Part shown: piece by piece, positions 8,262 to 47,460 of the stretch | Layout of the letters: each line of letters begins with the position of its first letter | Position numbering within the stretch: position 1 is the stretch's first letter | Source: a virus | IMG/VR virus record: IMGVR_UViG_3300044736_000016 | Location: 1 to 64,000 of that record | Strand: one strand, 5' to 3' | DNA: 64,000 bases | Notes under the pieces: model-generated | Seen by the model: the letters and a program-made list of their open reading frames with translations, nothing else | The model's database searches: none | Told to the model about the DNA's origin: nothing | Program-made: the position numbers and the translations under genes

Positions 8262-8383
8262 GCTCCCTCCGTACCGGCGACGGCCGTACCGTCGTCTCTA
8301 TGATCGCGTTTGTCTCTCAGCGTGGAGATAGGCACGATCGTCCCGCCCACGGCCGCAGCGGGCAAGTGCGAGACGTCGGCCAT
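8258..8383 (-). CDS. 41-residue hypothetical protein
   Basis: Starts in a TGATG junction with the VirD4/TraG-like ATPase and ends in an ATGA junction with the next gene. The N-terminal half is hydrophobic (VSHLPAAAVGGTIVPIST), the rest charged. Coupling on both sides supports it. Confidence 0.5.
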   Translation of the reverse strand: MADVSHLPAAAVGGTIVPISTLRDKRDHRDDGTAVAGTEGA

Positions 8384-10152
8384 CAGGCGCCCTCCTGCTT
8401 GGCAACGTCTGCGGTTTCCGCGAACATGTCCGAGAACACCCCTGGTACGCCCGCATCTGTTTCGGTCGAACCCTGCTCGTGGATCTGGTCGAGCCCGTAC
8501 GGCACCGTGAGCTTTCCCCACATCTCGAACGGACGAGTGTCGCCATGGTAGACCGTCTTGGCAAGCGTGATCCGCTCGCTCATGCTGATAAGTACCTTGC
8601 CATCCGCGATGTTGGTGATCTCATGCTGCGGCCAACGCCATTCATCATGCGGCGTCACAGTGCGGGTGACCGTACGGGTGCGCCGCTGCTCCTTGTGCTG
8701 CGCATGGCGCTCGTGGCTGGCGTGGTCGTCGTCGACCGTCGGCTGCTGGCGCCACCACGGGGCACGGGTGCGGGCCACCGCCTTGGTCGTCCGGTGGATG
8801 GTGTGCTTGCCGCCGGTCCGCTCAAGGCTGGCGAGCAGCTTGGGATCCTTGCACCCGCGCAGCACAGCGGTGACCGCCATGCCCTCGCGGACCACCCTCT
8901 CGGTCTCCGCGTTCCACCGCAGGCTGAACTGTCCCATTGCCTGCACGGAGGCCATGAGCACGACCCCGCGTCCTCCCCCGTCGCCGATGATCCGCGTGAG
9001 AGACGGCAGGGGACTGAGCGTCGCCATCTCGTCCAGCGCAAGCAGGAACGGCCGCTCCAATGGCTGCCCACCCCGGCTGTCGGAGATGGTGTATGCCGCC
9101 TCCGTGATCTCCTCGATTAGCCCGGTGGTCAGCGGCGCCAGGTCGCAGTTCGGGTCCGAGGGGGCGACGACGAACAGCGCATGATCGCGGCCCAACTGCG
9201 GTCGGACGCTCGGGTCATGCTCGTCGTATCCGAGGAACTCGTACGGGTCGAAGCCGCACTCGCCAGCAAGGTTCGCATCCGCCAGGACCCGCGGGTTGTC
9301 GAACGCCGAGATGGCCGCGTCGAGGCAGGACCATACAGACCCCACCTCATCGCTCTCGCGCACCTTGGGGTCGCGCAGGGTCAGGCTGGCTAGGTTCTCG
9401 AGCGCCTGCCGGTCCGGGCAGAGATGTGGGTTCCCTTCCCACCGCGCGATCCTGGTCTTGAGGATGTCCGCTGGCTCGTCCACGTTGTGCTGCTTCACCC
9501 ATGAGCGGACGTGCCCCATGCCCTTGCCGTCCAGCGCAGCGGCGTACAGGAGCGGCGCAAGGTACTGCGTGGCCCGCGTCTGCCAGTGGCTCGGATCCTT
9601 GGCCCCTTTGCCGGCGTTGATGCCCATGGCTCGGGCGCGCTTGGTGGCAACGTAGAAGTCCTCGCAGCCTCGCAGCGGAGACCAGTGCAGGCGACGCACC
9701 CACGGCGGCACGTCGTCGGCTCCGAGGATCTGCATGGGGTCGAACACCCACACCTTGCCGCGGTAGGTGCGGACCGCCTTGCAGTGCTCAAGGATGTCCG
9801 GCTTGGTACTCGTGGCGACGACCGGTCCCAGCCACGCCTGCACGTTGGGGATGATCAGCGTGGCGGTCTTGCCTCGCTGCGAGATGGCGACGATCAGGAC
9901 GTGCTCACGCGGAGGAGCCTGCACGAACCGGCCCTTGTCCCAGCCTAGAATGGGGCGTCCGGGGATGATCCCGTGCCAGATCGGGTCAACGGGATCAAGG
10001 CAGTGTAGCCGGGGCGGACGGAGGCGCTGGCCATCGCGGAACACTGGGGAGGCGTGGTACTGAGCGAGGAGGCGCGGACCGTAGCGCATCTTGCCGTGCC
10101 AGCCAAGGCCACTCATCCCGGCGAGAGCGGCGACGATCTCGGGGAGGATCAC
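8383..10152 (-). CDS. VirD4/TraG-like coupling ATPase
   Basis: 589 residues related to type IV secretion coupling proteins, which pump DNA to a conjugation channel. HVLIVAISQRGKTATLIIPN (about 84-103) is the Walker A region, with the first Gly of the P-loop replaced by Ala; ATSTKPDILEHC follows as in TraG/VirD4; RPFLLALDEMATLSPLPSL is Walker B; ASVQAMGQF is the sensor region. Unlike VirD4 and TraG, no clear N-terminal membrane anchor is visible. No relaxase or VirB4 homologue is present in the window. It may move the phage genome during conjugal-type transfer, or work with the nearby membrane proteins as another translocase. It overlaps the gene upstream by ATGA. Confidence 0.8.
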   Translation of the reverse strand: MILPEIVAALAGMSGLGWHGKMRYGPRLLAQYHASPVFRDGQRLRPPRLHCLDPVDPIWHGIIPGRPILGWDKGRFVQAPPREHVLIVAISQRGKTATLIIPNVQAWLGPVVATSTKPDILEHCKAVRTYRGKVWVFDPMQILGADDVPPWVRRLHWSPLRGCEDFYVATKRARAMGINAGKGAKDPSHWQTRATQYLAPLLYAAALDGKGMGHVRSWVKQHNVDEPADILKTRIARWEGNPHLCPDRQALENLASLTLRDPKVRESDEVGSVWSCLDAAISAFDNPRVLADANLAGECGFDPYEFLGYDEHDPSVRPQLGRDHALFVVAPSDPNCDLAPLTTGLIEEITEAAYTISDSRGGQPLERPFLLALDEMATLSPLPSLTRIIGDGGGRGVVLMASVQAMGQFSLRWNAETERVVREGMAVTAVLRGCKDPKLLASLERTGGKHTIHRTTKAVARTRAPWWRQQPTVDDDHASHERHAQHKEQRRTRTVTRTVTPHDEWRWPQHEITNIADGKVLISMSERITLAKTVYHGDTRPFEMWGKLTVPYGLDQIHEQGSTETDAGVPGVFSDMFAETADVAKQEGA

Positions 10153-12132: not shown

Positions 12133-15100
12133 CTATCCCATCCCGTGCGAGTTGCCGCCGATTTCGTGCGGCGGCGTGGTGTCTGTCTCTGCCGCGGAGT
12201 GATCCGGGGCGAGGTCTCTCGTCTCGGCCGTATCGCGCTCCGGCGTGCGGTCGGCCCTCGGCTCATCGTCACGCTTCGGCTCTGCGGGCTCCGGCGTGTG
12301 ATCTGCCTCCTGCTCATCGCGTCCCGGCTCGTTCTTGGCGGTGCGATCGGCCATCTCGGGCGCAGGCTCCGATTCTGGCGTGTCATCGGGCTCCGGGCGG
12401 GCTTCATTTGGCTGCTCGCGGTCCTGCTCCTCGGCAGCGTCAGGGCGCGACGGTCCATCAGTAGGCCGATCAGTAGCGCGCTCCTCCACGGCGTCATCCG
12501 CGGGATTGACGATCAGTTTGCGGTCTTGCGCCAAGTCTGCGAGTAGAGGCTGATCCGGGATTGCGTCTTCGGCAGTTGTCCGTGGATCCCCGACAGCGTG
12601 GAGAGCGTCATTGATGGGGACGGCGTTGGTGTCTGGAGCGTCCGGCGGATCGGTACCTGCGTCCACGACGCCTATAACTTGCCCGCGGTTATTCAGAAGC
12701 TGCCCGCCTGAATCCCCTGGATCAGATCGTGCGTCCACTTCGATGGTGTCAGCGACGTGGACAGGCTTCCCGGTGACATCATCTGGACTTGTGATTTCGT
12801 CCGCATGCGGGCTGGTCACGCGGCCGGTGTGGCTGTCGGTGCTGTGGCCGTAGTCGCCGACGATGCTCACAGGATCGCCAACCGCCACGTTTTTGGAGTC
12901 GCCGAGCACGGCCGGGTTCATTGGTGGTGCTCCCTCCACTTCCAACAGGTCAACATCGTGAGCCGTGTCGTCTCTAAGTACGAGTGTCTGATATTGATGG
13001 CTATCGACTTCCACGATCGTCGGCTGGTGCAGAGCAGCGGCATCCTCAACAACGTGGTGAGCGGTGAGTAACCGGTTGCCTGGCAGTACAATGCCTGTGC
13101 CCACGCCGTGGCCGGATGGATCGACGATGCGCGCGATGCCAGCATGGGTGGCGGTTGGCGCTGGTGAGATTGGTACTGGGGTATCGTGCAGAGTAGGTCC
13201 ACCGCTAGCCATCAGCGCTGCCGCGACAATGCCGACGCTGGGATGCGTCACCTGCCTATGCGCTGGCATTTCTTCTGCGCTGACGTGAGGTGTGTCGATC
13301 ATCTGCGGCACGGACCTTTCTGGTACTTCTACACTGATCGGCTTTGGCGACAAGCCAACCAGATCCGCGAGCCCATGTCGCTCCAGCACGTCGGGGTCAT
13401 GGGGTGGGCGCTCTGCTGGCTGCGCGTCGTCGACCGTGGGAGGTGGCGGTAGCTCGGCGTCTTCCGGTCGCCCAAGCCCACGTCTGCGCTCGGGTGGCAC
13501 GGCGTCCTCGGTCTCGTTCCCTGCGTCGATCGGAGCCCGTTCGGGCAGCCCACGCTCCCCCGCTCGAGTAAGCCCACGTCGGAGTTCGGGCGCTACGCCA
13601 TCCTGCTCTGCCGTGCGGCTCTGTCCGTACACAGGCTCAGGCAGATCGCCAGTGCCAGCCTGCCGCAGACCACGCTCGCGCTCTGGCGGTGTGGTGCGTG
13701 GACCCTGCCCGCCCAACCTCGTCCACGCCTCGTCCAAGTTGCGCTCGAAGGTCTCGCGGTCGACGGGCAGGCCACGCTCGCGTGCCTTGGCAGCCACTTG
13801 TGCCTGTGTGGCGTAGGCGTCGCTCCAACCCGGCGGTGTGGTCGTGCTGGCGGGCTCGGCATCACTTACCGCGCCGTCTCGCAGCCACGACGTGTCCGTC
13901 AGCGGGCTGGGGACGTTCTGCCGTGGGGCACTCGGGCTAGCCTGCTGCTCCCACATTGGCGCTGCGTCGCGGAGGCGTCCAGACTGCTCACGCTCGACCG
14001 GAGCGGCCTGCATCTCACGCAGTGCGGATGCGTCGGTGATCTGCTGGAGTAGGTCGGGCTCCTGCGACCCAGCGTGAAGCCGATGACGTTCTGCGGTCGG
14101 CAGGCCAGCGTGGCCGTTCCCTACCGCACCCGCCATGTCCACGATCTCTGCGGTGACGGGCCGGCCGTCCACACGCGTCACCACGGGCTGCGCTGCGTGC
14201 TCTGGTGTGGCTGTGATCCCACGGCGCTCGGCAGCGAATACGTCGTATCCATCCCGTCCCACAGCGTCGCGCACCGTTGATGTGGGCGGCGCATCGGTGA
14301 TGGCGGGACGTTCGGCGGACACGGTGCGGTCACGGTCCTGCGCATGTTCCTGCTCGGCTGCGGCCATCCGTGCCTCACGTTCCTGCCGCTCTGCCGGGGT
14401 ACGGAGTTCGTCGCGCGGATCCGGCACGACCTCACGGTGCGCTCGGTGCATGTCTGCCGCGGTGGTGCCGGGTGGAAGGCCGTTCAGGTCGTCAACCATC
14501 CACGCGTCGTTGATCGGGTCCGATCTACGCTGCTCGTCCATCCTCTGCGCGAACCGCTCTAGCCGATCGTTGCGTCCAACGTCCGGATCCACTACCGCTA
14601 TTTGCTCGGCGCTGTGGAGTTCTTTGCGCAGATCCATGTTGACACCGTTCCCCAGCGCAAGGTCGACATCGGAGTGGGACAGATGCGTGCCGAAGTCACT
14701 CTCGCGGTCGATGTCTGAGTAGTCACGTCGCCGTGCCGCTCCACTGTGCTGGATCACGGTCAGCCCTTCCGCCTCAGCCGCTTCACGGATGCGCTGTGCG
14801 GTCTCTGGAGTGGCGAACCCTTCCACCGCCGCGTTCTGGTGAAAGATGTCCCCGCCGTATCCGACGCTGTTGGCCATGCCCGGTTGAGAGCCGATGGTCG
14901 CGAACCCGGCGTGGTTCATGCGGACGAGCGGGTCTTTGATGAGCGCCGTCTCGGAGTCGGGATCGGGATGGCCGTTCGGATGTGCAAGATGACCGGGCAG
15001 GAATTGCTCTGCGGTGATCTTGCCGAGGTGGTTGATCGTCGTAGCGTCGCTCCAGTCGCGGATGACGCGCTGCTCGCGAGCGGGCCTTTCCGCAGCCAAC

Positions 15101-16629
15101 ACGTCCGGTACCGACTCCTTCACCAGCCCATGCTGCTTGGCGAGGACGGACGCGGCCGTGCCCTCTTCGTGGCCGTTGATCCTGTCGACTTGCCGTAGTT
15201 CCTCAAGCGAAGGCACTCCAATGACCTTGCCGTCCTTGTCGAGTGCGAGCGTGGAGGTGTTCGTCTCAACCCCACCGCGGAGGAATAGCGCGTTTTCTGC
15301 CACCCTGGCCGCGCGCTGAGCACGCGGAGAGGCGACGGACTGCGGCACGGCGGCTGCGTTGGCCACGGCCTCCTCGCGCTGTATGCCGTCGAGGGACCGT
15401 ATTCCTCGCTGGACCCGTTGCTCCTGGGCAGGCGTCAGGGGAACCACGCCAGCCGTGTCACGCTGCGGGGTCCGTGGCTTCCGTCCGCCGAGCACCGGCA
15501 CGCTGGAGCCGAGGGCGTCCGCGATGCTCGCCACGGACGGCATACGGCGTGGCTTGCTGGCGTGGCGCTGGCGGCCGTTGCTACCGCCGCCTCCACCGCC
15601 GTTTCGCGCTGCGCTGGCCGGTGGCTTGGCTGCGGCCCTGCTGCGTGCGTCCGGCGTGGCCGGTGGCTTCTCGCCGCATGCGCTGACCACCTTGCCGCCG
15701 ATTCCGGCGACGAACGACCCATGAGCGCCGACTTCGAGATCCCACAACTGCCGCTGCCGTACCGCCTTGCGCGCCTGCTGGTTGCCGAGCCACGAGTGGT
15801 GACCGCTGTGGCCGTGGCCTGCGTCCATGCGACGTGCCTGATACGTTGGACGGAACGGTGCGAACACGTGCTCGATATCGGTGCGCTCGCCGAGGGTCTC
15901 CGCAACGATGCCCATCATGGTCACCAGAAACGCAGAGGTGGTCGGAAGGGGTTTCCAGTCTGGGCCGTAGTAGCCCTTCAGCAGTGCACGGCGGTAACGT
16001 TCGTCCATCCCGAGACCCCATGGCGGGACCGTCTTGGTGTGAGGCTTGTCGCCGAAGTGCTCTGCCAGAAACCGTGCCTGCTCGCGGTCGCGCCCCTCGA
16101 AAGTGACGCCGCCGCCGCTCTTATCCTCGCGTCCCGTCCAACCTGAGAGATACTGGCGGATGTGCTGCGCCTCACGCTTATCCGAAGCCTTGATCGTGAT
16201 GCGATCGCCGTTGACTTCACCACTGCGTAGGTAGGAGCCGACGAGATGCCATTCCTCTGGCGTCTCCGGTGCACCAGCCGGGATCGGCAGCGGATCGATG
16301 TGAGTTGGTGTGGCCCACGCGTGGCGCCGCTTGTCGAACAGGCCCGCGCTCATCCATCCGGGTGTCCCGCCGTTCGATGTGGCCCGCACCAGCACGGGGT
16401 GGCCGTCCGACGCCTCAATCCCAGCATGCCCATGCCCAGACACCCGCACCGTCGAACCCTTGCGCCGATGGACGTTCGTGACAGGCTGCCAACTGCCGTT
16501 GCGATCGAGCACGCGGTGGCTCTGGCTGACGTCCTGCATGTGCATGATCCGCTCGTCTGTGATGACGGGCGTCTTGCCGGGAAACCCCTCGGGCGGACGG
16601 CGCGGCGGCTTGGAAATCTGCGTGGGCAT
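12133..16629 (-). CDS. Giant polyprotein: degenerate intein, DUF6919-like region, trypsin-like protease
   Basis: 1,498 residues. 1: residues about 15-320 resemble an intein: an N3-like HRVLDRNGSWQPVTNV, block B EASDGHPVLV, LAGLIDADG-like LVGSYLRSG and ALLKGYYGP, and block F LWDLEVGAHGSFVAG. The nucleophile Cys1 and the C-terminal His-Asn are lost (VVSAC at the end), and the endonuclease acidic residues are gone, so it should neither splice nor cut. 2: about 560-640 holds MNHAGFATIGSQPGMAN, resembling actinobacterial DUF6919. 3: long charged, repeat-rich linkers. 4: about 1165-1330 is an HtrA/trypsin-like protease: LLTAHHVV (His about 1189), DVDLLEVEG (Asp about 1226), DPGDSGGQLL (Ser about 1305). 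5: a Glu/Asp/Arg-rich tail. ATG 16629 is chosen because upstream codons are non-coding in character and a small membrane gene ends at 16635. Possible roles: virion protein injected with DNA, or conjugation surface protein. Confidence 0.75.
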   Translation of the reverse strand: MPTQISKPPRRPPEGFPGKTPVITDERIMHMQDVSQSHRVLDRNGSWQPVTNVHRRKGSTVRVSGHGHAGIEASDGHPVLVRATSNGGTPGWMSAGLFDKRRHAWATPTHIDPLPIPAGAPETPEEWHLVGSYLRSGEVNGDRITIKASDKREAQHIRQYLSGWTGREDKSGGGVTFEGRDREQARFLAEHFGDKPHTKTVPPWGLGMDERYRRALLKGYYGPDWKPLPTTSAFLVTMMGIVAETLGERTDIEHVFAPFRPTYQARRMDAGHGHSGHHSWLGNQQARKAVRQRQLWDLEVGAHGSFVAGIGGKVVSACGEKPPATPDARSRAAAKPPASAARNGGGGGGSNGRQRHASKPRRMPSVASIADALGSSVPVLGGRKPRTPQRDTAGVVPLTPAQEQRVQRGIRSLDGIQREEAVANAAAVPQSVASPRAQRAARVAENALFLRGGVETNTSTLALDKDGKVIGVPSLEELRQVDRINGHEEGTAASVLAKQHGLVKESVPDVLAAERPAREQRVIRDWSDATTINHLGKITAEQFLPGHLAHPNGHPDPDSETALIKDPLVRMNHAGFATIGSQPGMANSVGYGGDIFHQNAAVEGFATPETAQRIREAAEAEGLTVIQHSGAARRRDYSDIDRESDFGTHLSHSDVDLALGNGVNMDLRKELHSAEQIAVVDPDVGRNDRLERFAQRMDEQRRSDPINDAWMVDDLNGLPPGTTAADMHRAHREVVPDPRDELRTPAERQEREARMAAAEQEHAQDRDRTVSAERPAITDAPPTSTVRDAVGRDGYDVFAAERRGITATPEHAAQPVVTRVDGRPVTAEIVDMAGAVGNGHAGLPTAERHRLHAGSQEPDLLQQITDASALREMQAAPVEREQSGRLRDAAPMWEQQASPSAPRQNVPSPLTDTSWLRDGAVSDAEPASTTTPPGWSDAYATQAQVAAKARERGLPVDRETFERNLDEAWTRLGGQGPRTTPPERERGLRQAGTGDLPEPVYGQSRTAEQDGVAPELRRGLTRAGERGLPERAPIDAGNETEDAVPPERRRGLGRPEDAELPPPPTVDDAQPAERPPHDPDVLERHGLADLVGLSPKPISVEVPERSVPQMIDTPHVSAEEMPAHRQVTHPSVGIVAAALMASGGPTLHDTPVPISPAPTATHAGIARIVDPSGHGVGTGIVLPGNRLLTAHHVVEDAAALHQPTIVEVDSHQYQTLVLRDDTAHDVDLLEVEGAPPMNPAVLGDSKNVAVGDPVSIVGDYGHSTDSHTGRVTSPHADEITSPDDVTGKPVHVADTIEVDARSDPGDSGGQLLNNRGQVIGVVDAGTDPPDAPDTNAVPINDALHAVGDPRTTAEDAIPDQPLLADLAQDRKLIVNPADDAVEERATDRPTDGPSRPDAAEEQDREQPNEARPEPDDTPESEPAPEMADRTAKNEPGRDEQEADHTPEPAEPKRDDEPRADRTPERDTAETRDLAPDHSAAETDTTPPHEIGGNSHGMG

Positions 16630-16634
16630 TTTGG

Positions 16635-16814
16635 TTATCCCAGACGTGCGTGGCTGCCGGGCATGTAGGCGTAGATGCACATGACGCCGATGAGTGCGCC
16701 GATGATGCCGCCTACCACCCTGACCACGACTTTCTGTCTGAACCCCGTGATGGCGAGCCTGATGCCCATGAACACCGCGACTCCACCGACGAGACAGATG
16801 GCTATGCCCAGCAT
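16635..16814 (-). CDS. Small membrane protein, two TM segments
   Basis: 59 residues: MLGIAICLVGGVAVFMGIRL forms TM1 and VVGGIIGALIGVMCIYAYM forms TM2, with a short basic loop between. It sits 2 bases after a similar small membrane gene. Size and topology resemble VirB2/TrbC pilin-like or VirB3-like subunits, but sequence alone does not prove this. Confidence 0.65.
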   Translation of the reverse strand: MLGIAICLVGGVAVFMGIRLAITGFRQKVVVRVVGGIIGALIGVMCIYAYMPGSHARLG

Positions 16815-16816
16815 CC

Positions 16817-31398: not shown

Positions 31399-33519
31399 CT
31401 ATCCAGCCCTCCGCTGACCCTTCCAGTGCCTGATCAGGCGGCCCATCTCGGACTCGCTCACGTAGGCACCCTGCATCCGGCGCGTCTCGCCGTCGTCGTT
31501 CAGCCTGCAGAGCATGTCCCCACGGCCCGCCAGTTTCTCCGCTCCCATCTCATCGAGAATGACCCGCGAGTTCACCCCGCTCGAGACCCGGAAGGCGATG
31601 CGGCTGGGGAAGTTCGCCGTGATGTCTGCTGGGATGAGTTCCGCCGAGGGTCGCTGGGTTGCCGCGACAAGGTGGATCCCGGCCGCCCTGGCAAGCTGAG
31701 CCAGCCGCTGCAGGGCCTCCTCCACGTCATCCTTCGCCCGGAGCACAAGGTCGGCAAGCTCGTCGATCACCACCACGATGCGGGGCAGGGGCTCGGCCCT
31801 AGTGTTGTGCTGGGCGATGTTCTTTGACCCACTGCCGGCGAGGATTCGGTACCGCTTGTCCATCTCGTCGACCACCTCGCGGAGCGCCTCAACCGCCTCG
31901 TCAGCGTCGTTGACGATGGGCCGTAGCAGATGGGGGATGCCAGCGTACCCCTCCAACTCGACCACCTTGGGGTCGATGAGCACGATCCGTAGTTGATCCG
32001 GGGTGGACTGCAACAGGAGCGAGGCGAGCAGGACGTTGATGTACACGGACTTGCCGGAGTTCGTCGCCCCGCCGATCAGCAGATGCGGGGTGGTCGTCAG
32101 GTCGCCGACCGCGGACTGCCCGGAGAGGTCTGCGCCGAGGGCGATGGCCAGCCCGGTGCGGGCCACGATGCGGAAGGCCGGGGCCTGCACGAGGGACCGC
32201 AGGGTGACCAGCTGGGCGGACTTGTTCGGCACCTCGATGCCCACGGCGGCCTTGCCGGGGATCGGCGCCTGGATCCGGATGGTGGCCGCAAGGGCGAGGG
32301 ACAGGTCGGTCTGCCGCGTGGTGATGCGCCTGACCGACACGCCGGGGGCAGGCTGTAGGACGTACTGCGTGACCCGCGGGCTGGGGTTGACCTCGATCAC
32401 CCGACCCATGACGCCGAAGGATTCCAGCGTGGATTCGATCAGCGAGCGGGTGTTGGCGATCTCCGCTTCCTGCCGAACGCGGTCAGTCTTGCCCTCGTCT
32501 AGAAGGTCGATGGGCGGCAGGAGCCACTCTGAGTGCCCCGTCTCCAAATCTGGCAAGACCATGAGCGCGGTCTGTCCGGAGTCGCCAGCTGGATACTGCC
32601 CGTCATCCGTGGCGGGTTTTGGAGACTCCGATGGGCGCGGAGGGTTCGCCATGGCCTCTCGCATCGGGCCGGCCAGCCACGGCACGCCCTGCCAGTTGCG
32701 TCCAGCCTGAGCGGGAGCGTGCGTCTCGTCCTCCGCAGGCTCCTCCGTGTCGCCGCTCTCCTCGCCACGGATCCATCCCCACAGTCGCTCAGACCGTAGC
32801 CCACGCCGCATCCCGTCGCGCATCGCACCGGCCACCACCGGCACATCAAGGTCCACGGCTAGCACCAGGCCGAGGCACGTCAGGCCGACGAACAGCACCA
32901 CCGACCACCACGGCCCGACCCAGCCAGCTGCCGAATCCGCCAGCGAACCTCCGACCGACCCTGCCCCGCCCCGCGTCCACGGCACCAACGCGGTCAGCCC
33001 GAGCAGCCCCGGGATAGCGATGCCCACCCCCGCAGCCGAGGCGTGACCGTGCCCCAGCAGCAACCGAACTCCGACCAGCAGCAGACCGGCCACGAGCAGA
33101 GCATCCCCGACCACCCCCAGCCAGTCCGTGAGCATCGAGCCCTGCGGGATGAGCAGGAGCGGGATGGAGAGCAGCGCCGCGATGAGCGCCCCGACGCCGT
33201 GCAGGTTGCGCCGCTGGTCGTGGGTGACCTTGGGCGCCTTGGCGGTACGCCTTGCCGGTCGTCTGGTCCGGGTCGCCATCACGCCTCCTGCGGGAAGGTC
33301 GGGGAACTTGCGGCCGTGCTCTTTCTCATGGCACGGACGGCAGAGCACCATGAGGTTCGCACGCCTGCAGTCGTTCGGTCTGCGGTTCTTGTGGTGAGCC
33401 TGTAGCGCCCGATCCGTCTTGCACCGCTTGCATCTCTGGCCTCGGCGGAACTCGCGGCTGAGGTCGGGCCAGCACTCCGGGTAGTCGGTGCCGGGGTAGA
33501 CGCGGAACGTGGTAGCCAC
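31399..33519 (-). CDS. ftsK: HNH domain fused to FtsK/SpoIIIE DNA translocase
   Basis: 706 residues. Residues about 30-68 are an HNH/zinc domain (CKRCKTDRALQAHHKNRR, MVLCRPCHEKEH). Residues about 100-215 hold four TM helices. Residues about 350-700 are an FtsK motor: Walker A GGATNSGKSVY (about 480-490), Walker B VVVIDELADL (about 585), then LAATQRPS and FPSRIAFRV. No gamma DNA-binding domain is visible. ATG 33279, behind AGGAGG, starts an FtsK product without the HNH. Related one-protein pumps (TraB) drive conjugation of Streptomyces elements, so this is a strong candidate for DNA transfer or segregation. Confidence 0.88.
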   Translation of the reverse strand: MATTFRVYPGTDYPECWPDLSREFRRGQRCKRCKTDRALQAHHKNRRPNDCRRANLMVLCRPCHEKEHGRKFPDLPAGGVMATRTRRPARRTAKAPKVTHDQRRNLHGVGALIAALLSIPLLLIPQGSMLTDWLGVVGDALLVAGLLLVGVRLLLGHGHASAAGVGIAIPGLLGLTALVPWTRGGAGSVGGSLADSAAGWVGPWWSVVLFVGLTCLGLVLAVDLDVPVVAGAMRDGMRRGLRSERLWGWIRGEESGDTEEPAEDETHAPAQAGRNWQGVPWLAGPMREAMANPPRPSESPKPATDDGQYPAGDSGQTALMVLPDLETGHSEWLLPPIDLLDEGKTDRVRQEAEIANTRSLIESTLESFGVMGRVIEVNPSPRVTQYVLQPAPGVSVRRITTRQTDLSLALAATIRIQAPIPGKAAVGIEVPNKSAQLVTLRSLVQAPAFRIVARTGLAIALGADLSGQSAVGDLTTTPHLLIGGATNSGKSVYINVLLASLLLQSTPDQLRIVLIDPKVVELEGYAGIPHLLRPIVNDADEAVEALREVVDEMDKRYRILAGSGSKNIAQHNTRAEPLPRIVVVIDELADLVLRAKDDVEEALQRLAQLARAAGIHLVAATQRPSAELIPADITANFPSRIAFRVSSGVNSRVILDEMGAEKLAGRGDMLCRLNDDGETRRMQGAYVSESEMGRLIRHWKGQRRAG

Positions 33520-39769: not shown

Positions 39770-40551
39770 GCACAGAGCCGAAGCCGTTGTGGCAGATAAT
39801 GCCCGAGATGAGCGAGGCAGAGTTCCAGCGGTTCGTGAACCGGATCGCTGCGCATGGATACCTGTCCAGCCAAGAGGTGCTTGTCGACCGCGATGGCCAG
39901 ATCATCGACGGCCACCACCGGGCTCGGGCCTGTGCGGCACTGGGTATCGAGTATCCGCGCCGCGTTCTTGACCAGGAGATGACCGACGACGAGAAGTGGG
40001 AGATCGTCTGGCTCATCAACGTCTCACGCCGTCACCTGACCCTCGATCAGCAGCGTGACCTCGTCCGCCAGTGGTTGAAGCGGCACCCTGAGACCTCCAA
40101 CCGCAGCGTGGCAGCCGACGTAGGTGTGGATGACAAGACTGTCGGCAAGATCAGGGGCGAACTGGAGGCGTCTGCGGAAATTCCGCAGACGGTGCGTCCC
40201 CACCAGCGTCAGGACCAGAGGCGCAACGGTGTGCCTACCGACGATCCGGAGCCTGACACCGTCGAGGCTGACGAGCGCGAGTTGATGACCGACGTAGCCG
40301 ATCACCGCAACGGAGTGTGGTTCGAGGTCACCATCGGGTATCCGGCTCCGAGCCAAGTCGCACGCCAGCGTGGCGACCTCCCCTACTCGCGTGAATCCGA
40401 GCGCCGTGAGTGGCACTCCACGCGGCTGTACCTGACCGCTCCAGCCCCACAGTCCCTGATGGATGGCGCCTCGGTGGTGAAAGAACTCGCCGAATCCCTC
40501 TGGCGTCAGATGCAGGCCGACCCCTTGCTCACGATGCTGATCCATGCCTGA
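39766..40551 (+). CDS. ParB-like DNA-binding protein
   Basis: 261 residues. The ParB/Srx N-domain is seen in YLSSQEVLVDRDGQIIDGHH and RARACAALGIEYP, where IIDGHHRA is the family's GxxR-type core. A helix-turn-helix follows (TSNRSVAADVGVDDKTVGKI, about 130-155). The C-terminal third is a separate beta-rich domain. It may centre plasmid partition or regulate the head operon it begins; no ParA is visible in the window. Confidence 0.8.
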   Translation: MSTEPKPLWQIMPEMSEAEFQRFVNRIAAHGYLSSQEVLVDRDGQIIDGHHRARACAALGIEYPRRVLDQEMTDDEKWEIVWLINVSRRHLTLDQQRDLVRQWLKRHPETSNRSVAADVGVDDKTVGKIRGELEASAEIPQTVRPHQRQDQRRNGVPTDDPEPDTVEADERELMTDVADHRNGVWFEVTIGYPAPSQVARQRGDLPYSRESERREWHSTRLYLTAPAPQSLMDGASVVKELAESLWRQMQADPLLTMLIHA

Positions 40552-40744
40552 GACGCGCCCGACCTTCGCCGATGAGGTGGACGCCATGCTGATGGCAGAG
40601 CGTGAGCCACCCGCCTACAACATGGCCGCCTCCTGCGTGACGTGCGGCGTGGAGATGCAGCCCGAGTCGGTGATCGCTGAGGTTGGCGCGGTGAACTGGC
40701 AGTGCCCGACGTGCCATGTGGTGGTGAAGGTGCGCGTCCGGTGA
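40544..40744 (+). CDS. Zinc-ribbon protein
   Basis: 66 residues: ASCVTCGVEMQPE and NWQCPTCHVVVKV, a CxxC...CxxC ribbon. Eight-base overlap with ParB-like gene, GTGA downstream. Confidence 0.6.
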   Translation: MPETRPTFADEVDAMLMAEREPPAYNMAASCVTCGVEMQPESVIAEVGAVNWQCPTCHVVVKVRVR

Positions 40745-41607: not shown

Positions 41608-42215
41608 GCCCGCCGATCATCGGATACCGCGCATGGCGGGTCGTTGGTGACTACCGGCTGCAGAGCGTCTTCACGCTCGCTCGATGGCCGGTGAGGGATC
41701 GGCTGGAGGCAGAGTGCCGCCTACCGAATACGGCGATCAGCCTAGCACCCACTACTAGCCACACCGCGCCTTCCCTCGAATGCTCCTGCGGCATCTACGC
41801 GCGGACGACGCTCGCCGGTATCTTCGATGAACTCTGGCGTGGTGGTATGGCGGGAGAACACTCGGTCATCGTCGGAACCGTGGCCATGTTCGGCAGCACG
41901 TACCATGGCAAGGCGCATCCACACACCATCAGGGCACAGTACGCTCAGCCGATCTGCCTGCTTGCGCCCGACGCGTGGTATCCGTTCCGCACTCCGGTAG
42001 AGACACTGAGCGAACCGCCGACCGACATCGACATGACGGGGTGGCGCAGTACTCTAGACCGTGTCTCGGAGCAGTATGGCCTGCCCATCGTGGCGCGCTC
42101 TGGCATCGAGAAGTACGCTGCGGAGTTCGGCGAGCCGCTGAGATCGGCCGGGGATGAGCGGGTCACACGTGCAGCGGAGGAGCCACGCTGGCGCTCGTGG
42201 TGGCCGTGGGGATGA
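41604..42215 (+). CDS. Conserved phage-type protein of unknown function
   Basis: 203 residues. The pattern GYRAWRV at the start and SLECSCGIYA in the middle, followed by VGTVAMFG, is one I associate with a family widespread in actinobacterial phages; no function is known to me. ATGA overlaps both sides. Confidence 0.65.
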   Translation: MSPPIIGYRAWRVVGDYRLQSVFTLARWPVRDRLEAECRLPNTAISLAPTTSHTAPSLECSCGIYARTTLAGIFDELWRGGMAGEHSVIVGTVAMFGSTYHGKAHPHTIRAQYAQPICLLAPDAWYPFRTPVETLSEPPTDIDMTGWRSTLDRVSEQYGLPIVARSGIEKYAAEFGEPLRSAGDERVTRAAEEPRWRSWWPWG

Positions 42216-42331
42216 GGGTTCCGAACACCTACCCGCCGAGCATCCTGCGCTCGTGGTGGCTCTGGGTGTGGCGGCCGTGGACACGACCGATGACGTGGGA
42301 ACGTACCGTCAGGAGCATAGAGCCACGCTGA
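42212..42331 (+). CDS. 39-residue Trp/Arg-rich protein
   Basis: ATGA overlap upstream, TGATG junction downstream. Contains ILRSWWLWVWRPWTRPMTW: amphipathic, membrane-active look. Role unknown. Confidence 0.5.
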   Translation: MRVPNTYPPSILRSWWLWVWRPWTRPMTWERTVRSIEPR

Positions 42332-42825
42332 TGCCTGGCCGGTCCTGCACGTTGTGCCAACACCCATCCCGCGGAGAGATCGACAAGGCATTGGTACGCG
42401 GCGAGACGCTCAGGGGGATCGCGGCACAATTCGGCACAAGTACCGGCACACTGCAACGTCACAAGGTTGACCACCTTCCCGTGATCCTCGCCGAGGAGGC
42501 GCGACAGGCAGCCGAAGTAGCAGATACGGAGATCGTGGACTATGCCGCCGATGTGCTTCGCGACCTCATCGACACTCGCGCCGACGCTAGGCAAGGTGCC
42601 AAGAACGCTCTGTCGGAGGGACGCTTCGCAGGCGCCGGAGCACTCCTCGCTGTCCGTCTCAAGGCCAACGAACTCCTCGCCGAGCTTGAGGGGAGACTGA
42701 ACCGCACCCCGCAGGTCAACGTGCTGGTGCAAATCCGTGATGCCTTGGCCGATCTTCCACCCGAGATGCGCGCCGTGATCGCTGACAGGCTGGACCGTAT
42801 CGAGGCCCACGGGCCGGCAGCGTGA
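42331..42825 (+). CDS. terS: Probable terminase small subunit
   Basis: 164 residues. N-terminal zinc/HTH unit: RSCTLCQHPSRGEIDKAL, then GIAAQFGTSTGTLQRHKVDH as recognition helix; a helical oligomerisation region follows. Placement 6 bases before the terminase ATPase gene, plus DNA-binding N-domain and helical C-domain, fits a small subunit that recognises the packaging site. No direct family match can be checked. Confidence 0.65.
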   Translation: MPGRSCTLCQHPSRGEIDKALVRGETLRGIAAQFGTSTGTLQRHKVDHLPVILAEEARQAAEVADTEIVDYAADVLRDLIDTRADARQGAKNALSEGRFAGAGALLAVRLKANELLAELEGRLNRTPQVNVLVQIRDALADLPPEMRAVIADRLDRIEAHGPAA

Positions 42826-42831
42826 TGCACA

Positions 42832-43659
42832 GTGGCTGCACTGTTCTCACACGCCCGCAGACTGGCTGCCGCGCTCGACCCTGTCATCCGGATGCGACAG
42901 GCTGGTATCACCGCTGACCAGTGGCAGGAGATTCTTCTACGTAGCACTGCGCAGCGGATCATCATCCTCGCATCCCGCCAAGGGGGGAAGTCGACCGTCG
43001 TTGCTACGGACGCCTTGCATGTCGCTGAGCAGGACCCGCCCGGCGACGTCATCATTGGCGCGGTCAAGCAAGATCAGTCAGCGGAAATGCTTCGGAAGTC
43101 CAAGACGATCTACGGCATCACGGGCAGCATCTTCGAGGACGAACTGGACGGCGATCTCAAGGGGAACTCGATTCTCCGGGTGGAGATGCCGAACGGGTCG
43201 CGAATCCTAGCGGTGCCAGGGAAGGCTGGCACTGTGCGATCGTTCACGGCCAAACTGCTGATCATCGACGAGGCGGCCTACGTCCCTGACGACTTCTACA
43301 AGGCCGTCTTCCCCATGCTCGCCGTATCCCACGGCCGCATCATTCTGCTCTCCACCGCGCATGCCAAGTTCGGAGCGTTCTATGACATCTGGACCGAGGC
43401 GCCTGAGTGGGACTTTCGGCTGCCAGCTGAGGCGCAGGAGGAGGCGTGGCTCAAGATCAAGGTGCCGTGGTGGGAGTGTCCGCGTATACGGCCGGCTTTC
43501 ATCGAGGCTGAGCGAGCGAGGTTCGGCAACGCTTACGTGCAGAGGGAGTACGAGTTGGAGTTCGCCGACGCCATCACCGCTGCCTTCCGCACCGAGGACA
43601 TCGACGCCATGGCGCGCGACGACGTGGAGCCGTGGGCGTGCGCAGGGTGGGCGCGGTGA
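42832..43659 (+). CDS. terL: Terminase large subunit, ATPase half
   Basis: 275 residues, covering only the packaging ATPase. ASRQGGKST (about 47-55) is the Walker A variant of large terminases; KLLIIDEAAYV Walker B; LLSTAHAKFGAFYDIW the coupling motif; DFRLPAEAQEEAW and FEDELD lie around it. The reading frame ends after VEPWACAGWAR, just where the linker to the nuclease normally begins. The nuclease half is a separate gene at 44246. Start GTG 42832. Confidence 0.85.
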   Translation: MAALFSHARRLAAALDPVIRMRQAGITADQWQEILLRSTAQRIIILASRQGGKSTVVATDALHVAEQDPPGDVIIGAVKQDQSAEMLRKSKTIYGITGSIFEDELDGDLKGNSILRVEMPNGSRILAVPGKAGTVRSFTAKLLIIDEAAYVPDDFYKAVFPMLAVSHGRIILLSTAHAKFGAFYDIWTEAPEWDFRLPAEAQEEAWLKIKVPWWECPRIRPAFIEAERARFGNAYVQREYELEFADAITAAFRTEDIDAMARDDVEPWACAGWAR

Positions 43660-43961
43660 GGACCATCATCGAACTGTGGACTGACGAACGTCGGGTATCT
43701 GGTGGCAGCCCTCAGACGATCCCGGCTCCTGGTCATGGCTGCTGGAGTGAGGGCGATGCCGTTTGGCGGCCACACACCGGAACCGATGACCCTCGCCGCA
43801 TCTGGTGGGATCATGTTCCAGAGGGTCACTGCCCGCTGTGCAAGGAACGGCTCTGCATCGCGGGAAAGCCTTCGGACTATCGTCTGTTCGAGAGCGATGG
43901 CTGGATGCACTGCTGGACCTGCCGATGGTCGGTGAGAATGCGAACGGTGGACACGCCTTGA
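43656..43961 (+). CDS. Zinc-binding protein inside the split terminase
   Basis: 101 residues from GTG 43656 (GTGA overlap with the ATPase). HCPLCKERLCIAGKPSDYRL and WMHCWTCRW form a zinc ribbon. It does not resemble an intron-encoded nuclease. Confidence 0.6.
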   Translation: MRTIIELWTDERRVSGGSPQTIPAPGHGCWSEGDAVWRPHTGTDDPRRIWWDHVPEGHCPLCKERLCIAGKPSDYRLFESDGWMHCWTCRWSVRMRTVDTP

Positions 43962-43966
43962 CGTTG

Positions 43967-43995
43967 TTGTGGCATCCCACGCTCGCTCCTACCCT
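43967..43995 (+). promoter_or_regulatory. Possible leaderless promoter
   Basis: TTGTGG (43967-43972), 17 bases, TACCCT (43990-43995), then 6 bases to ATG 44002. GTGGCATCCCAC (43969-43980) is a small inverted repeat. Box match is moderate. Confidence 0.4.
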
Positions 43996-44001
43996 GCCCG
44001 T

Positions 44002-44217
44002 ATGCTCGACATCGATGCAGCCAACGGTCTCTGGTACTGCGCTGTTCGCGATGGTCTCGTGGAGACGTACGCCGAGGACGCGTCCACATGGGCGCTGACC
44101 GACCGCGGACTGGAGGTTGCCTACCGGCGAGCGTTCACGCAAGGCGCGGATCCAGAGTGCCTGTCAGCGAGCCAACTCATTTCCCTCGCGGTGTACGGCA
44201 TCACGGACATGGGGTGA
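44002..44217 (+). CDS. Hypothetical protein inside the split terminase
   Basis: 71 residues, winged-helix-like (TWALTDRGLEVAYRRAFTQG). Starts at ATG 44002; GTG 43969 is an alternative. A ten-codon frame (44214-44246) links its stop (GTGA) to the nuclease ATG (TGATG). Confidence 0.55.
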   Translation: MLDIDAANGLWYCAVRDGLVETYAEDASTWALTDRGLEVAYRRAFTQGADPECLSASQLISLAVYGITDMG

Positions 44218-44245
44218 GGGCGTCGCCAGCTGGAGACCGGTCCTG

Positions 44246-45094
44246 ATGCGGCTTCGGTTGGGCGTTGATCTTGGAAAACTGAACGACTATAGCGCCGTGA
44301 CCGTGTGCGAGGTGACCGACGCACCCGCAGCGCTGGGGCATGTTACCGCAGCGGACGTGGACGCGATGAGCATCGGTATCGACCCTCTCAGCCCGCTCGG
44401 TATCCTTGGCGTGAGGCATGCGCAGCCCGCGTACGTCGATCCGCTCGACCACCTGCCGGGACCGCGTGTGCCGTCGCTCGAACCGCTCTACACCGCACGC
44501 CACATCGAACGCGCCCCGCTCAATACCCCCTATACCGACGTGGCGATCGGCGTGAGGGTCATCGTCCAGTGGCTCCGGCAGCAGTTTCCTCGCATCGTGC
44601 CGGAACTCTACGTCGATGCCACCGGGGTCGGTATCCCGGTGGTGGACATCCTGCGACGCGAACTGTCAGGCATCCTGCATCGCCTGGTGCCGGTCACGAT
44701 CGTCAGCGGCGATGGGTATCACGACGTGGTCACGGCGGACGGGGCGGACCGCAAGGGCAGGGTGGTGCCGCGGAGTGCGCGTGGGCTGAAGGTCGGCAAG
44801 GGCTTCCTCGTGTCGCGGTTGCAGGCGTTGTTGCAGACGCAGCGCCTTGTCGGTCCGAGGACGATGGTCGCCGAGTTGCAGGACGAGTTGCGGGTGTTCG
44901 AGACGCGGGCGAAGGAGGGGCGGGACCAGTACGGCGCGAAGGTCGGTGCGCACGACGACCTTGTCATTTCGGCAGCGCTCGCCGTGCTGGACAGACCTCG
45001 GCAGGACGCTCGGCGCGTGGTGGAGACGCTGGAGACGATCAGCGGTCCTAGTATCGTCGGCGGCGGGCCGGCGGGGGCATGGGACATCCGGTGA
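44246..45094 (+). CDS. terL: Terminase large subunit, nuclease half
   Basis: 282 residues, RNase H-fold nuclease of large terminases. LRLGVDLGKLNDYSAVTV (first Asp about 8), ELYVDATGVGIPVVD (second Asp) and VGAHDDLVISAALAVLD (third acidic cluster) are the metal-binding triad. Together with the ATPase gene at 42832 this makes a complete large terminase in two polypeptides, 586 bases apart. It cuts concatemeric DNA at packaging. Confidence 0.85.
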   Translation: MRLRLGVDLGKLNDYSAVTVCEVTDAPAALGHVTAADVDAMSIGIDPLSPLGILGVRHAQPAYVDPLDHLPGPRVPSLEPLYTARHIERAPLNTPYTDVAIGVRVIVQWLRQQFPRIVPELYVDATGVGIPVVDILRRELSGILHRLVPVTIVSGDGYHDVVTADGADRKGRVVPRSARGLKVGKGFLVSRLQALLQTQRLVGPRTMVAELQDELRVFETRAKEGRDQYGAKVGAHDDLVISAALAVLDRPRQDARRVVETLETISGPSIVGGGPAGAWDIR

Positions 45095-45348
45095 CCGTAC
45101 TAGTAGACCACGCCAAGGACGCTGGGCTGATCGCTTGCGCGGGTGACAGGTGGATCGGTGGTCACGGGATCACATGCCGCCGTCTCGCCGGCCCGGGGCG
45201 TTGGATCTACTGCAAGTACTGCTACAAGAGCGTCACGCCGTGGACGCTGGAGGAGACCGTACCAGAGACGGGAGTGTGGCGGATGGTCTGCTGCGCAGAG
45301 TGCGGCGCGGGCTTAACGCGGCCTGAGCGCTTCACCGCGCCAGCGTAG
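45091..45348 (+). CDS. Zinc-ribbon protein
   Basis: 85 residues from GTG 45091 (GTGA overlap): GITCRRL, IYCKYCYKSVTPW and MVCCAECGAGL supply Cys pairs for one or two zinc sites. Unrecognised. Confidence 0.6.
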   Translation: MTVLVDHAKDAGLIACAGDRWIGGHGITCRRLAGPGRWIYCKYCYKSVTPWTLEETVPETGVWRMVCCAECGAGLTRPERFTAPA

Positions 45349-45372
45349 GGGCAACCCGTCCCGCGTCCCACG

Positions 45373-45564
45373 ATGCGTCCCACGATGGTACAGGGACAGC
45401 CGACACCGAAGGCCACGCTGAGATCGCGGGTTCGTCGTACCCTGCATCTGCGTGTCCCATCCTTGCGGCCGGTGAACGCCGACACCAAGGCGACCGACAC
45501 CGCTGCGGCCAAGTACCTCCCACCAGCGCAGACCACCGACCACTACCTGAGCCAGTACCTGTAG
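45373..45564 (+). CDS. Small basic protein before the portal gene
   Basis: 63 residues, Arg/Thr-rich (KATLRSRVRRTLHLRVPSLR), ending directly before the portal GTG. Acceptable mainly by position and lack of gaps in this operon. Confidence 0.5.
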   Translation: MRPTMVQGQPTPKATLRSRVRRTLHLRVPSLRPVNADTKATDTAAAKYLPPAQTTDHYLSQYL

Positions 45565-47460
45565 GTGGCGATCCTCGGTCCTGACGGTCGGGCGTTCCCA
45601 CAGACCACACGCGCAGAGTTCGCGGCTGCTCAGTCCGTACTATCGCGGCTACCTGCCGAACTGCGTCGTGCCGTGAACCTTGACGAGATCGGTGTCAGCG
45701 CTACCCAGATCATCGGGGGACTGATCTACGAGGAACGGGCGCCCGAACTCGCCGGGTCCAAGGGCATGGAGGTGTGGCGGGAGATGGGGCATGACGCCAC
45801 CTTGGCGATGTGCCTCCACGCCACCATCAACCCGCTGCGCAGCGCCGACTGGTTCATGGAGCCCGCGAGCGAAGACCCTGTCCACGTCGAGCAAGCTGAC
45901 CTCGCACACTGGTGCCTGTGGGAGTTCGGCACCATGTCATACGACGACCTGTTGCGCCAGCAGATGCGTGCCATGAAGCAGTACGGGATTGGATGCTCAG
46001 AGCTCTGCTATCGACCGATTCCCTCCGGTGAGTTCGCAGGCAAGTGGGGATGGGAGAAGTTGGCGTGGCGTTCACCGCTGTCCCTCTACCGCTTCAACGT
46101 CGAGTCGGTGCAGACGGAATACGGTGGCACGCGTCGCGAACTCGTCGAGGTGGTGCAGCGTGATCCTGCCAGCGGTGGGCTGTTCTACCTTCCCAAGGAC
46201 AAGGTACTGCTGTTCATCAACGACCTCGAAGGTGAAAACTTCCTCGGCAATTCAAGCTTTCGCCAGTGCTACGAGGCATGGCGGTACAAGCGTGCCATCG
46301 CGCGCCTGGAGGCCATCGCCCTAGAACGCTGCGGGATGGGACGCATGAAGGCCACGCTTCCGCAGGACTACTCCGACGAGGAGCGCAAGATGGCGCGGCA
46401 GATCGTTGAGAACGACCGCATCCACGAGAACGCCGGCATCGTCACCACCGAGGCGGTGCCGGTCGAGGTCATCCACAACTCAATCGAGGGGGCGGCATTC
46501 CGGGCGGCGTGGGAGGCGTACGACGCGGCGCTGTGCTTCCCGTTCCTCACGCAGTACCTGCTGCTCGGGCAGCGGGGCAACAGCGGGGCGTACTCGCTCA
46601 GCCAAGATCACTCGCAGATTCAGCTCACGCAGCTCAACGGTGATGCGAACCAGTTCGAGCAGGTGCTGAATCTCAGTCCGGGCATCCCGCTGCTCATCGC
46701 CATCAACTACGCGAACGCCGACCCGAGCAAGATGCCGAAGTTGCAGCACGGAGACATCGGCCGCAAGGACATGGAGCTGATGGGCAAGACCCTTCTCGCG
46801 CTGTCGCAGGGTGGGTGGGTCATGCCGACAGCGCAGGACGAGGACACGCTGCGCAAGTTCGTCGACCTCCCGGAGCGCGATCCGCTGCTCGGCCCCGAGG
46901 CGTTGGTGCCGCTCATCCAGCAGGTGCTGCCGCCGACGTGGTGGGGCACGCCGCACCAGGCTGGACAGGCGGTCAACCCTGCGGCCAAGGCTCTGGTCGG
47001 CTCTGGGACGCCCGTGTCGAGTGTTCAGCAGGCGACCGATGCGAAGGGGCAGTTTTCCGAGCGTGAGTGGGCCGTCATGGCTGAGCGATCGGTGAGGGCA
47101 CGGATGCCGTGGCGCCGCCCTGCGGTCAAGGGTGGACGCGTCACCGCCGAGGACGCTGTGAGGGTGCGGATGGGGGAGTATCTGTTGGACTACTTCGAGC
47201 AGGCCGACCGACCACGTATGCAGAAGCCCGACTCGCCATCGGTGCGCATTGCCAAGCGGCGCAGGCCGTACCAAGTAGCGCGTATGGCACAGGATGCGGC
47301 CAAAGTGGTGGAGATCAACGCACGAGCCAAGGCGGGCGGCGGGAGTGCGAACGGCAAGCGCAAGGTGGTCGTGAGCCCAGCGGACATCGTAGCGAGGCAG
47401 GGGCGTAGGTCGGTGCAGGACGTGCTTGCGGGCCTCGGCGCGAACGGGAGCGGGAAGTGA
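45565..47460 (+). CDS. Portal protein (DUF935, Mu gp29-like)
   Basis: 631 residues. Family features of DUF935 portals are clear: ATQIIGGLIYEERAPELAGS near the start, the LHATINPLRSADWFMEPAS block, WRSPLSLYRF, GLFYLPKDKVLLF, and the helical stem with GQRGNSGAYSLSQDHSQIQL. Ends in a Lys/Arg-rich tail. It forms the dodecameric gate through which DNA enters and leaves the head. GTG start follows the previous stop directly. Confidence 0.9.
   Translation: MAILGPDGRAFPQTTRAEFAAAQSVLSRLPAELRRAVNLDEIGVSATQIIGGLIYEERAPELAGSKGMEVWREMGHDATLAMCLHATINPLRSADWFMEPASEDPVHVEQADLAHWCLWEFGTMSYDDLLRQQMRAMKQYGIGCSELCYRPIPSGEFAGKWGWEKLAWRSPLSLYRFNVESVQTEYGGTRRELVEVVQRDPASGGLFYLPKDKVLLFINDLEGENFLGNSSFRQCYEAWRYKRAIARLEAIALERCGMGRMKATLPQDYSDEERKMARQIVENDRIHENAGIVTTEAVPVEVIHNSIEGAAFRAAWEAYDAALCFPFLTQYLLLGQRGNSGAYSLSQDHSQIQLTQLNGDANQFEQVLNLSPGIPLLIAINYANADPSKMPKLQHGDIGRKDMELMGKTLLALSQGGWVMPTAQDEDTLRKFVDLPERDPLLGPEALVPLIQQVLPPTWWGTPHQAGQAVNPAAKALVGSGTPVSSVQQATDAKGQFSEREWAVMAERSVRARMPWRRPAVKGGRVTAEDAVRVRMGEYLLDYFEQADRPRMQKPDSPSVRIAKRRRPYQVARMAQDAAKVVEINARAKAGGGSANGKRKVVVSPADIVARQGRRSVQDVLAGLGANGSGK

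What the first reader, a model, noticed from the sequence alone, without database searches (positions are those of the whole stretch)
42832..45094. Large terminase split into two genes with two genes between
The packaging ATPase ends cleanly at 43659 and the RNase H-fold nuclease starts at 44246, with a zinc protein and a winged-helix-like protein in the gap. Both halves keep all catalytic motifs, so this is gene fission, not decay. Cutting and pumping could be regulated separately.
Basis: partly seen in the sequence, partly recalled or inferred. Interest (0 to 1): 0.72.

Follow-up and report, generated by a model that had tools for sequence, protein, structure and literature searches.

The report
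Two-gene phage DNA-packaging motor
In this phage the enzyme that pumps DNA into the virus head is made as two separate proteins, an ATP-driven pump and a DNA cutter, and comparison with dozens of other viral sequences shows that this is an old, widespread arrangement rather than an accident here, so it can test whether pump and cutter really need to be joined.

Summary
An ATPase-only large-terminase gene (42832-43659) and a nuclease-only gene (44246-45094) are both intact, with all catalytic residues. Between them lie a 101-aa CxxC protein and a 71-aa protein. The four closest viral contigs all have it, and a profile search gave 47 non-redundant two-gene loci (42 well resolved) from at least eight bacterial phyla. 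In the nuclease tree all two-gene members fall on one side of one branch (SH-aLRT 98.6). In most loci the halves abut or overlap; genes between them are a lineage-specific extra step. The 71-aa gene is in all five contigs and strongly conserved; the CxxC gene is an insertion found only here. The nuclease belongs to phrog_27743, labelled 'unknown function'; profile, Pfam and fold searches identify it as the TerL nuclease domain. Two-gene TerL is already reported in Arthrobacter cluster AY phages, but those genes belong to other families, so that split is independent. Whether the halves act as separable subunits is untested; a split T4 gp17 loses translocation (PMC3012670), which makes this lineage informative.

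The parts
42154..42825 (+). probable small terminase (TerS): HTH protein directly upstream of the ATPase gene
   Evidence: position; weak phrog_57 TerS match (E=0.16); the gene at the same place in L004/L005 is a different HTH protein
42832..43659 (+). large terminase, ATPase half (275 aa, GTG start)
   Evidence: phrog_7579 1e-44, Terminase_6N 3e-13; PDB profile hit 4zni 4e-22; invariant R49 Q50 G52 K53, D146 E147 A148, T175
43656..43961 (+). 101-aa protein with two CxxC pairs (probable zinc ribbon); about 305-bp insertion found only in this contig; GTG overlaps the ATPase stop
   Evidence: absent from the four relatives; no relative found in viral contigs; no family match
44002..44217 (+). 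71-aa conserved protein of unknown function lying between the halves in all five contigs of the lineage
   Evidence: 97-100% aa identity, dN/dS 0.016-0.16; found only in these contigs
44246..45094 (+). large terminase, nuclease half (282 aa, RNase H fold)
   Evidence: phrog_27743 8e-19; A5 profile to 5tge/5m1q/5m1f about 1e-14; model to G20c TerL nuclease Z 18.1; catalytic Asp invariant
45565..47460 (+). portal protein (Mu/P23-45-like), the docking ring of the motor
   Evidence: Portal_Mu 6e-32, P23-45 portal 2e-10; phrog_113 8e-52

Best explanation
This is a tailed phage whose large terminase (TerL) is made as two polypeptides from two genes. It belongs to an old lineage in which the ATPase half (phrog_7579) and the nuclease half (phrog_27743) were separated at the interdomain linker. 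Shown: the two genes are separate, intact, conserved in relatives, and lie between a TerS-like gene and the portal gene. Inferred: the ATPase protein forms the portal-docked ring that pumps DNA; the nuclease protein joins it without a covalent link, through the surfaces that hold the two domains together in one-chain TerL, and cuts the concatemer at initiation and termination. In most members the gene overlap suggests translational coupling. In this lineage a conserved 71-aa gene, and in this contig also a CxxC gene, have been inserted at the junction, so the halves are very unlikely to be joined by frameshifting or readthrough. The junction is also where recombination has exchanged the upstream TerS-ATPase part independently of the nuclease.
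For: Families and catalytic residues. Same split in all four close relatives. Standalone ATPase-nuclease pairs in Streptomyces and Salinibacter plasmid-like elements and in viral contigs and prokaryotic genomes, including Brevibacterium antiquum CNRZ 918, a named strain. Nuclease tree separates split from one-chain forms with one change; ATPase monophyly not rejected (p-AU 0.90). Only one ATPase and one nuclease of this kind in the 109,768-bp record, which also encodes a major head protein and tail proteins. Purifying selection on both halves. Reading frames between abutting halves vary (19/11/3 over the three phases), against one programmed frameshift. Window and L002 are 100% identical at nucleotide level from about 42104 to the end of the ATPase, then 77-92% identical.
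Against: No protein or RNA data. No physical interaction shown. In T4, splitting gp17 at the linker keeps ATPase and nuclease activity but abolishes DNA translocation (PMC3012670), so separate halves might be expected not to work unless they bind each other strongly. Most loci are metagenomic. The 100%-to-80% identity switch could be a chimeric assembly rather than recombination.
Confidence: 0.85

Rival explanations
1. The halves are joined after transcription or translation (group I/II intron, trans-splicing, split intein, frameshift or readthrough), so a normal one-chain TerL is made.
For: Trans-spliced terminases exist in mirusviruses and are proposed for alloherpesviruses (PMC12768974); an intein-like insert is seen in one terminase here, L064. 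In three abutting loci (L114, L105, L106) the halves are in the same frame.
Against: No Rfam match in 42000-46000. The DNA between the halves holds a conserved gene with dN/dS 0.016-0.16. No room for split-intein halves at the ends. The frame relation differs among relatives and even inside this lineage (W and L004 phase 1; L002, L003 and L005 phase 2). Each nuclease ORF has its own start codon.
Confidence: 0.05
2. The second gene is not a packaging nuclease but a RuvC-like resolvase or another RNase H-fold nuclease; the ATPase works alone, like the phi29 motor.
For: RuvC folds also match the model (Z about 10). phi29 packages with an inactive vestigial nuclease domain (PMC9410871).
Against: TerL nucleases score Z 13-18, clearly above RuvC. 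25 of 34 family members match Pfam Terminase_6C. The profile finds only terminases in the PDB. The gene directly follows the ATPase gene across the lineage.
Confidence: 0.06
3. The split is a recent event or assembly error private to this phage, and the gap genes are debris.
For: The CxxC gene is indeed private to this contig.
Against: The same split is found in four close contigs and in many distant loci; the conserved 71-aa gene is under strong purifying selection.
Confidence: 0.02

Closest known systems
Arthrobacter cluster AY phages (BillyTP, PP978841; BlueShadow), TerL encoded by two consecutive genes (PMC11920828, PMC12820723)
   Same: ATPase and nuclease domains of TerL in separate, consecutive genes between TerS and portal
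   Different: Other families (phrog_19179 and phrog_21277, not phrog_7579 and phrog_27743); no significant similarity to this lineage's profiles; nothing inserted between. An independent split.
Thermus phage Riverbug TerL (417 aa) and Meiothermus phage MMP17 TerL (415 aa)
   Same: Closest cultured relatives of the ATPase half (38% identity); their C-terminal domain is homologous to the standalone nuclease (A5 profile, E 7e-27)
   Different: One polypeptide
Salinibacter pSR14/pSR31 and Streptomyces virginiae plasmid elements
   Same: Same two-gene families, ATPase gene followed by nuclease gene
   Different: Halves abut in pSR14 and S. virginiae; pSR31 has a second nuclease paralogue between; small elements
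Trans-spliced terminases of mirusviruses and alloherpesviruses (PMC12768974)
   Same: ATPase and nuclease parts encoded apart
   Different: The RNAs are joined by trans-splicing in eukaryotic hosts; here two complete ORFs with their own starts
N4/G7C-type split RNA polymerase (PMC5418858)
   Same: A phage enzyme divided into two genes, in G7C with unrelated genes between
   Different: Another enzyme

Membership tests
Tailed-phage large terminase (TerL) | ASCE P-loop packaging ATPase with Walker A, Walker B and motif III | tested here: met
Tailed-phage large terminase (TerL) | RNase H-fold nuclease with the catalytic Asp triad | tested here: met
Tailed-phage large terminase (TerL) | both domains in one polypeptide | tested here: not met
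   two ORFs with two genes between; this is a split TerL, not a canonical one-chain TerL
Tailed-phage large terminase (TerL) | lies in the packaging/head module next to TerS and portal | tested here: met
   portal downstream; the TerS call rests on position and a weak match
Tailed-phage large terminase (TerL) | ATP-driven DNA translocation and concatemer cutting | not testable with these tools
   needs biochemistry
Two-gene TerL lineage phrog_7579 + phrog_27743 | ATPase-only and nuclease-only genes of these two families, in that order | tested here: met
   nuclease tree places the window inside the split side
Two-gene TerL lineage phrog_7579 + phrog_27743 | usual but not defining (34 of 42 resolved loci): halves directly abutting or overlapping | tested here: not met
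   281-586 bp with one or two genes between in this sublineage
Cluster AY split TerL | same protein families as BillyTP genes 2 and 3 | tested here: not met
phi29-type packaging ATPase | vestigial inactive nuclease, no TerS | tested here: not met
   intact catalytic Asp in the nuclease
Trans-spliced terminase (mirusvirus/alloherpesvirus) | mRNAs of the two parts joined | not testable with these tools
   no RNA data; separate start codons argue against it

The most novel reading that the evidence does not exclude
In this lineage the packaging motor is truly heteromeric: the ATPase ring translocates DNA by itself and the nuclease is a detachable, exchangeable subunit recruited only to start and end packaging, with the conserved 71-aa protein as adapter or regulator between the two. 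That would show that the TerL nuclease domain is not a required moving part of the DNA pump.
Probability: 0.25. Interest if true: 0.78.

Novelty: new variant of a known kind. Interest (0 to 1): 0.55.

Why it matters
TerL is described as a two-domain protein whose C-terminal nuclease domain is universal in tailed phages (PMC7824862), and cutting T4 gp17 at the linker abolishes translocation (PMC3012670). A natural lineage with the halves as separate proteins, some with whole genes between them, gives a ready system to test whether the nuclease domain takes part in DNA movement or only cuts. It also gives a function to phrog_27743, now labelled unknown. Phage annotation that expects one TerL gene calls the ATPase half 'terminase' and leaves the nuclease 'hypothetical', as in the plasmid records.

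Tried and rejected
A structure model of the nuclease from only five near-identical sequences was useless (pLDDT 33) and was replaced by one with 34 sequences (pLDDT 74.6). Foldseek alone gave no match under E=0.001 (the best was a herpesvirus terminase nuclease); the VIA re-alignment resolved it. A genome-contig scan with the ATPase alignment found nothing; the nuclease alignment worked. tblastn of nucleases against cultured phages found no split relative, only one-chain TerL at best. L036 (apparent fusion) is a frameshifted locus, L064 holds an intein-like insert and L084 is a frameshifted ordinary TerL; all were left out. Relatives of the CxxC protein: none. Relatives of the 71-aa protein: only in the same four contigs. 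Early paper searches for a split terminase found nothing; the AY precedent came. Two profile comparisons with A5 failed in the tool; hmmsearch in Python replaced them.

Full report
What is there. The window is part of a 109,768-bp virus record. Around 42-47.5 kb it holds a packaging module on the + strand: an HTH protein in the TerS position (42154-42825), an ATPase-only large-terminase gene (42832-43659), a CxxC gene (43656-43961), a 71-aa gene (44002-44217), a nuclease-only gene (44246-45094) and a portal gene (45565-47460). Further on the record has a major head protein (64812-65804) and tail proteins, so this is a tailed phage. Only one ATPase and one nuclease of these families are found in the whole record.

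Identity of the halves. The ATPase protein matches phrog_7579 (239-column terminase family, E=1e-44) and Pfam Terminase_6N. A profile of 33 members finds the P74-26 TerL ATPase (4zni, 4e-22) and T4 gp17. The Walker A residues R49, Q50, G52 and K53, Walker B D146-E147-A148 and T175 are invariant. The nuclease protein has no Pfam match by itself, but all 34 aligned members match phrog_27743 ('unknown function') and 25 match Terminase_6C. Their profile finds the P74-26 and G20c TerL nucleases at 9e-15 to 1e-14. An AlphaFold model (mean pLDDT 74.6, core above 90) matches the G20c TerL nuclease at Z 18.1, rmsd 2.0 A over 154 residues; RuvC resolvases score about 10. D8, D14, D124 and D238 are invariant in the family; by motif position D8, D124 and D238 correspond to the G20c residues D294, D347 and D429 (residues named in PMC5389553; the mapping is my inference). 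Alignment with one-chain Riverbug TerL puts the break in the linker: the ATPase protein aligns to the end of the ATPase domain (residue 235 of 417) and the nuclease profile starts at residue 248.

Not an error, not an intron. Four other viral contigs encode close relatives of both halves, and all four have the same stop, the same separate nuclease ATG and the same 71-aa gene between. The 71-aa gene evolves under strong purifying selection (dN/dS 0.016-0.16; ATPase 0.04-0.25; nuclease 0.04-0.21). The CxxC gene is an insertion of about 305 bp present only in the window, placed exactly at the ATPase stop, without relatives in viral contigs. Rfam shows no intron.

How widespread. tblastn of the nuclease against plasmids found standalone nuclease genes directly behind short 'terminase family' genes in Streptomyces virginiae 16-kb plasmids and Salinibacter ruber pSR14 and pSR31; their proteins match phrog_7579 and phrog_27743. 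A profile scan then gave 80 loci from viral contigs and 22 from prokaryotic genomes. After removing duplicates, 47 loci are two-gene and 25 one-gene. After leaving out frameshifted, truncated and intein-bearing loci, 42 two-gene loci remain. In 34 of these the halves abut or overlap, often by 4 bp (33 by the motif distance, plus S. virginiae by its annotated start). Genes or longer gaps lie between them in four lineages: this one (5 contigs), pSR31 (a second nuclease paralogue), L030 (a gap of about 180 bp) and L060 (2.7 kb with several small ORFs). Source genomes include Acidobacteriota, Actinomycetota, Chloroflexota, Thermomicrobiota, Gemmatimonadota, Myxococcota, Pseudomonadota and Rhodothermota, and Methanothrix bins; most are MAGs, so bin assignments may be wrong, but Brevibacterium antiquum CNRZ 918 is a named strain. 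The collection was gathered with the nuclease profile, so the split:fused ratio says nothing about overall frequency.

History. In the nuclease tree the 47 standalone members and 24 one-chain members are separated by a single branch (SH-aLRT 98.6). The ATPase tree places a few one-chain sequences among the split ones with weak support, but holding the split rows together is not rejected (p-AU 0.90, long-branched rows left out). One old origin of the standalone nuclease is the simplest reading; separate re-fusions or domain swaps are not excluded. Inside the window's sublineage the parts have different histories: window and L002 are 100% identical at nucleotide level through TerS and ATPase (about 42104-43659), then 77-92%; L004 and L005 have unrelated TerS genes and diverged ATPase N-parts but about 90% identical nuclease genes (proteins). 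The junction therefore behaves as an exchange point (chimeric assembly is the alternative).

Mechanism. Shown: two intact genes, conserved catalytic residues, purifying selection, packaging context. Inferred: two polypeptides assemble into one motor. The case that the halves are not fused by frameshift or readthrough is strongest exactly here, because whole genes lie between; in addition the frame relation between halves varies among abutting loci (19, 11 and 3 in the three phases). Whether the nuclease stays bound during translocation is unknown. In T4, a split gp17 keeps both activities but loses translocation (PMC3012670), and the isolated P22 nuclease has reduced or no activity (PMC7617512), so either these halves bind each other well or translocation in this lineage does not need the nuclease. 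Experiments can decide.

Compared with what is known. Two-gene TerL is reported for Arthrobacter cluster AY phages (PMC11920828, PMC12820723). I read the BillyTP record: genes 2 and 3 are annotated as ATPase and nuclease domains, but they belong to phrog_19179 and phrog_21277 and show no significant similarity to the profiles of this lineage. They are an independent split. Trans-spliced terminases of mirusviruses (PMC12768974) are a different solution. I found no paper on the phrog_7579/phrog_27743 lineage, but only open-access PMC papers could be searched. Verdict: real, ordinary in being a terminase, unusual in being two proteins with genes between; a new variant of a known kind.

Noticed in passing
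window 8383-10152 (-) and 31399-33519 (-): The phage record also encodes a TraG/VirD4-type conjugation coupling ATPase (T4SS-DNA_transf 2e-13) and an FtsK/SpoIIIE translocase (6e-51), plasmid-like features for a tailed phage.
   Followed up: partly
window 12133-16929 (-): 1598-aa protein with a trypsin-like peptidase domain and DUF6919.
   Followed up: no
window 45079-45348 and 40544-40744: Further small CxxC proteins sit between the nuclease and the portal and upstream of TerS; the slot after the nuclease holds different genes in L002 and L005.
   Followed up: no
L020 5178-5780 and 5798-6436: Salinibacter pSR31 carries two tandem nuclease paralogues behind one terminase ATPase, both with the Asp residues intact.
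   Followed up: partly
L019, L021, L114: Two-gene terminases lie in small elements (16-kb S. virginiae plasmid, 15-kb pSR14, a compact Brevibacterium antiquum locus with a TerS-like gene carrying a CxxC-HTH stretch like the window's); these could be phage satellites.
   Followed up: no
L106 genome (G002): Four phrog_27743 nuclease matches in one Thermoleophilia MAG, suggesting several such prophages.
   Followed up: no
L060 3-4008: A more distant two-gene terminase has about 2.7 kb with several small ORFs between the halves.
   Followed up: partly
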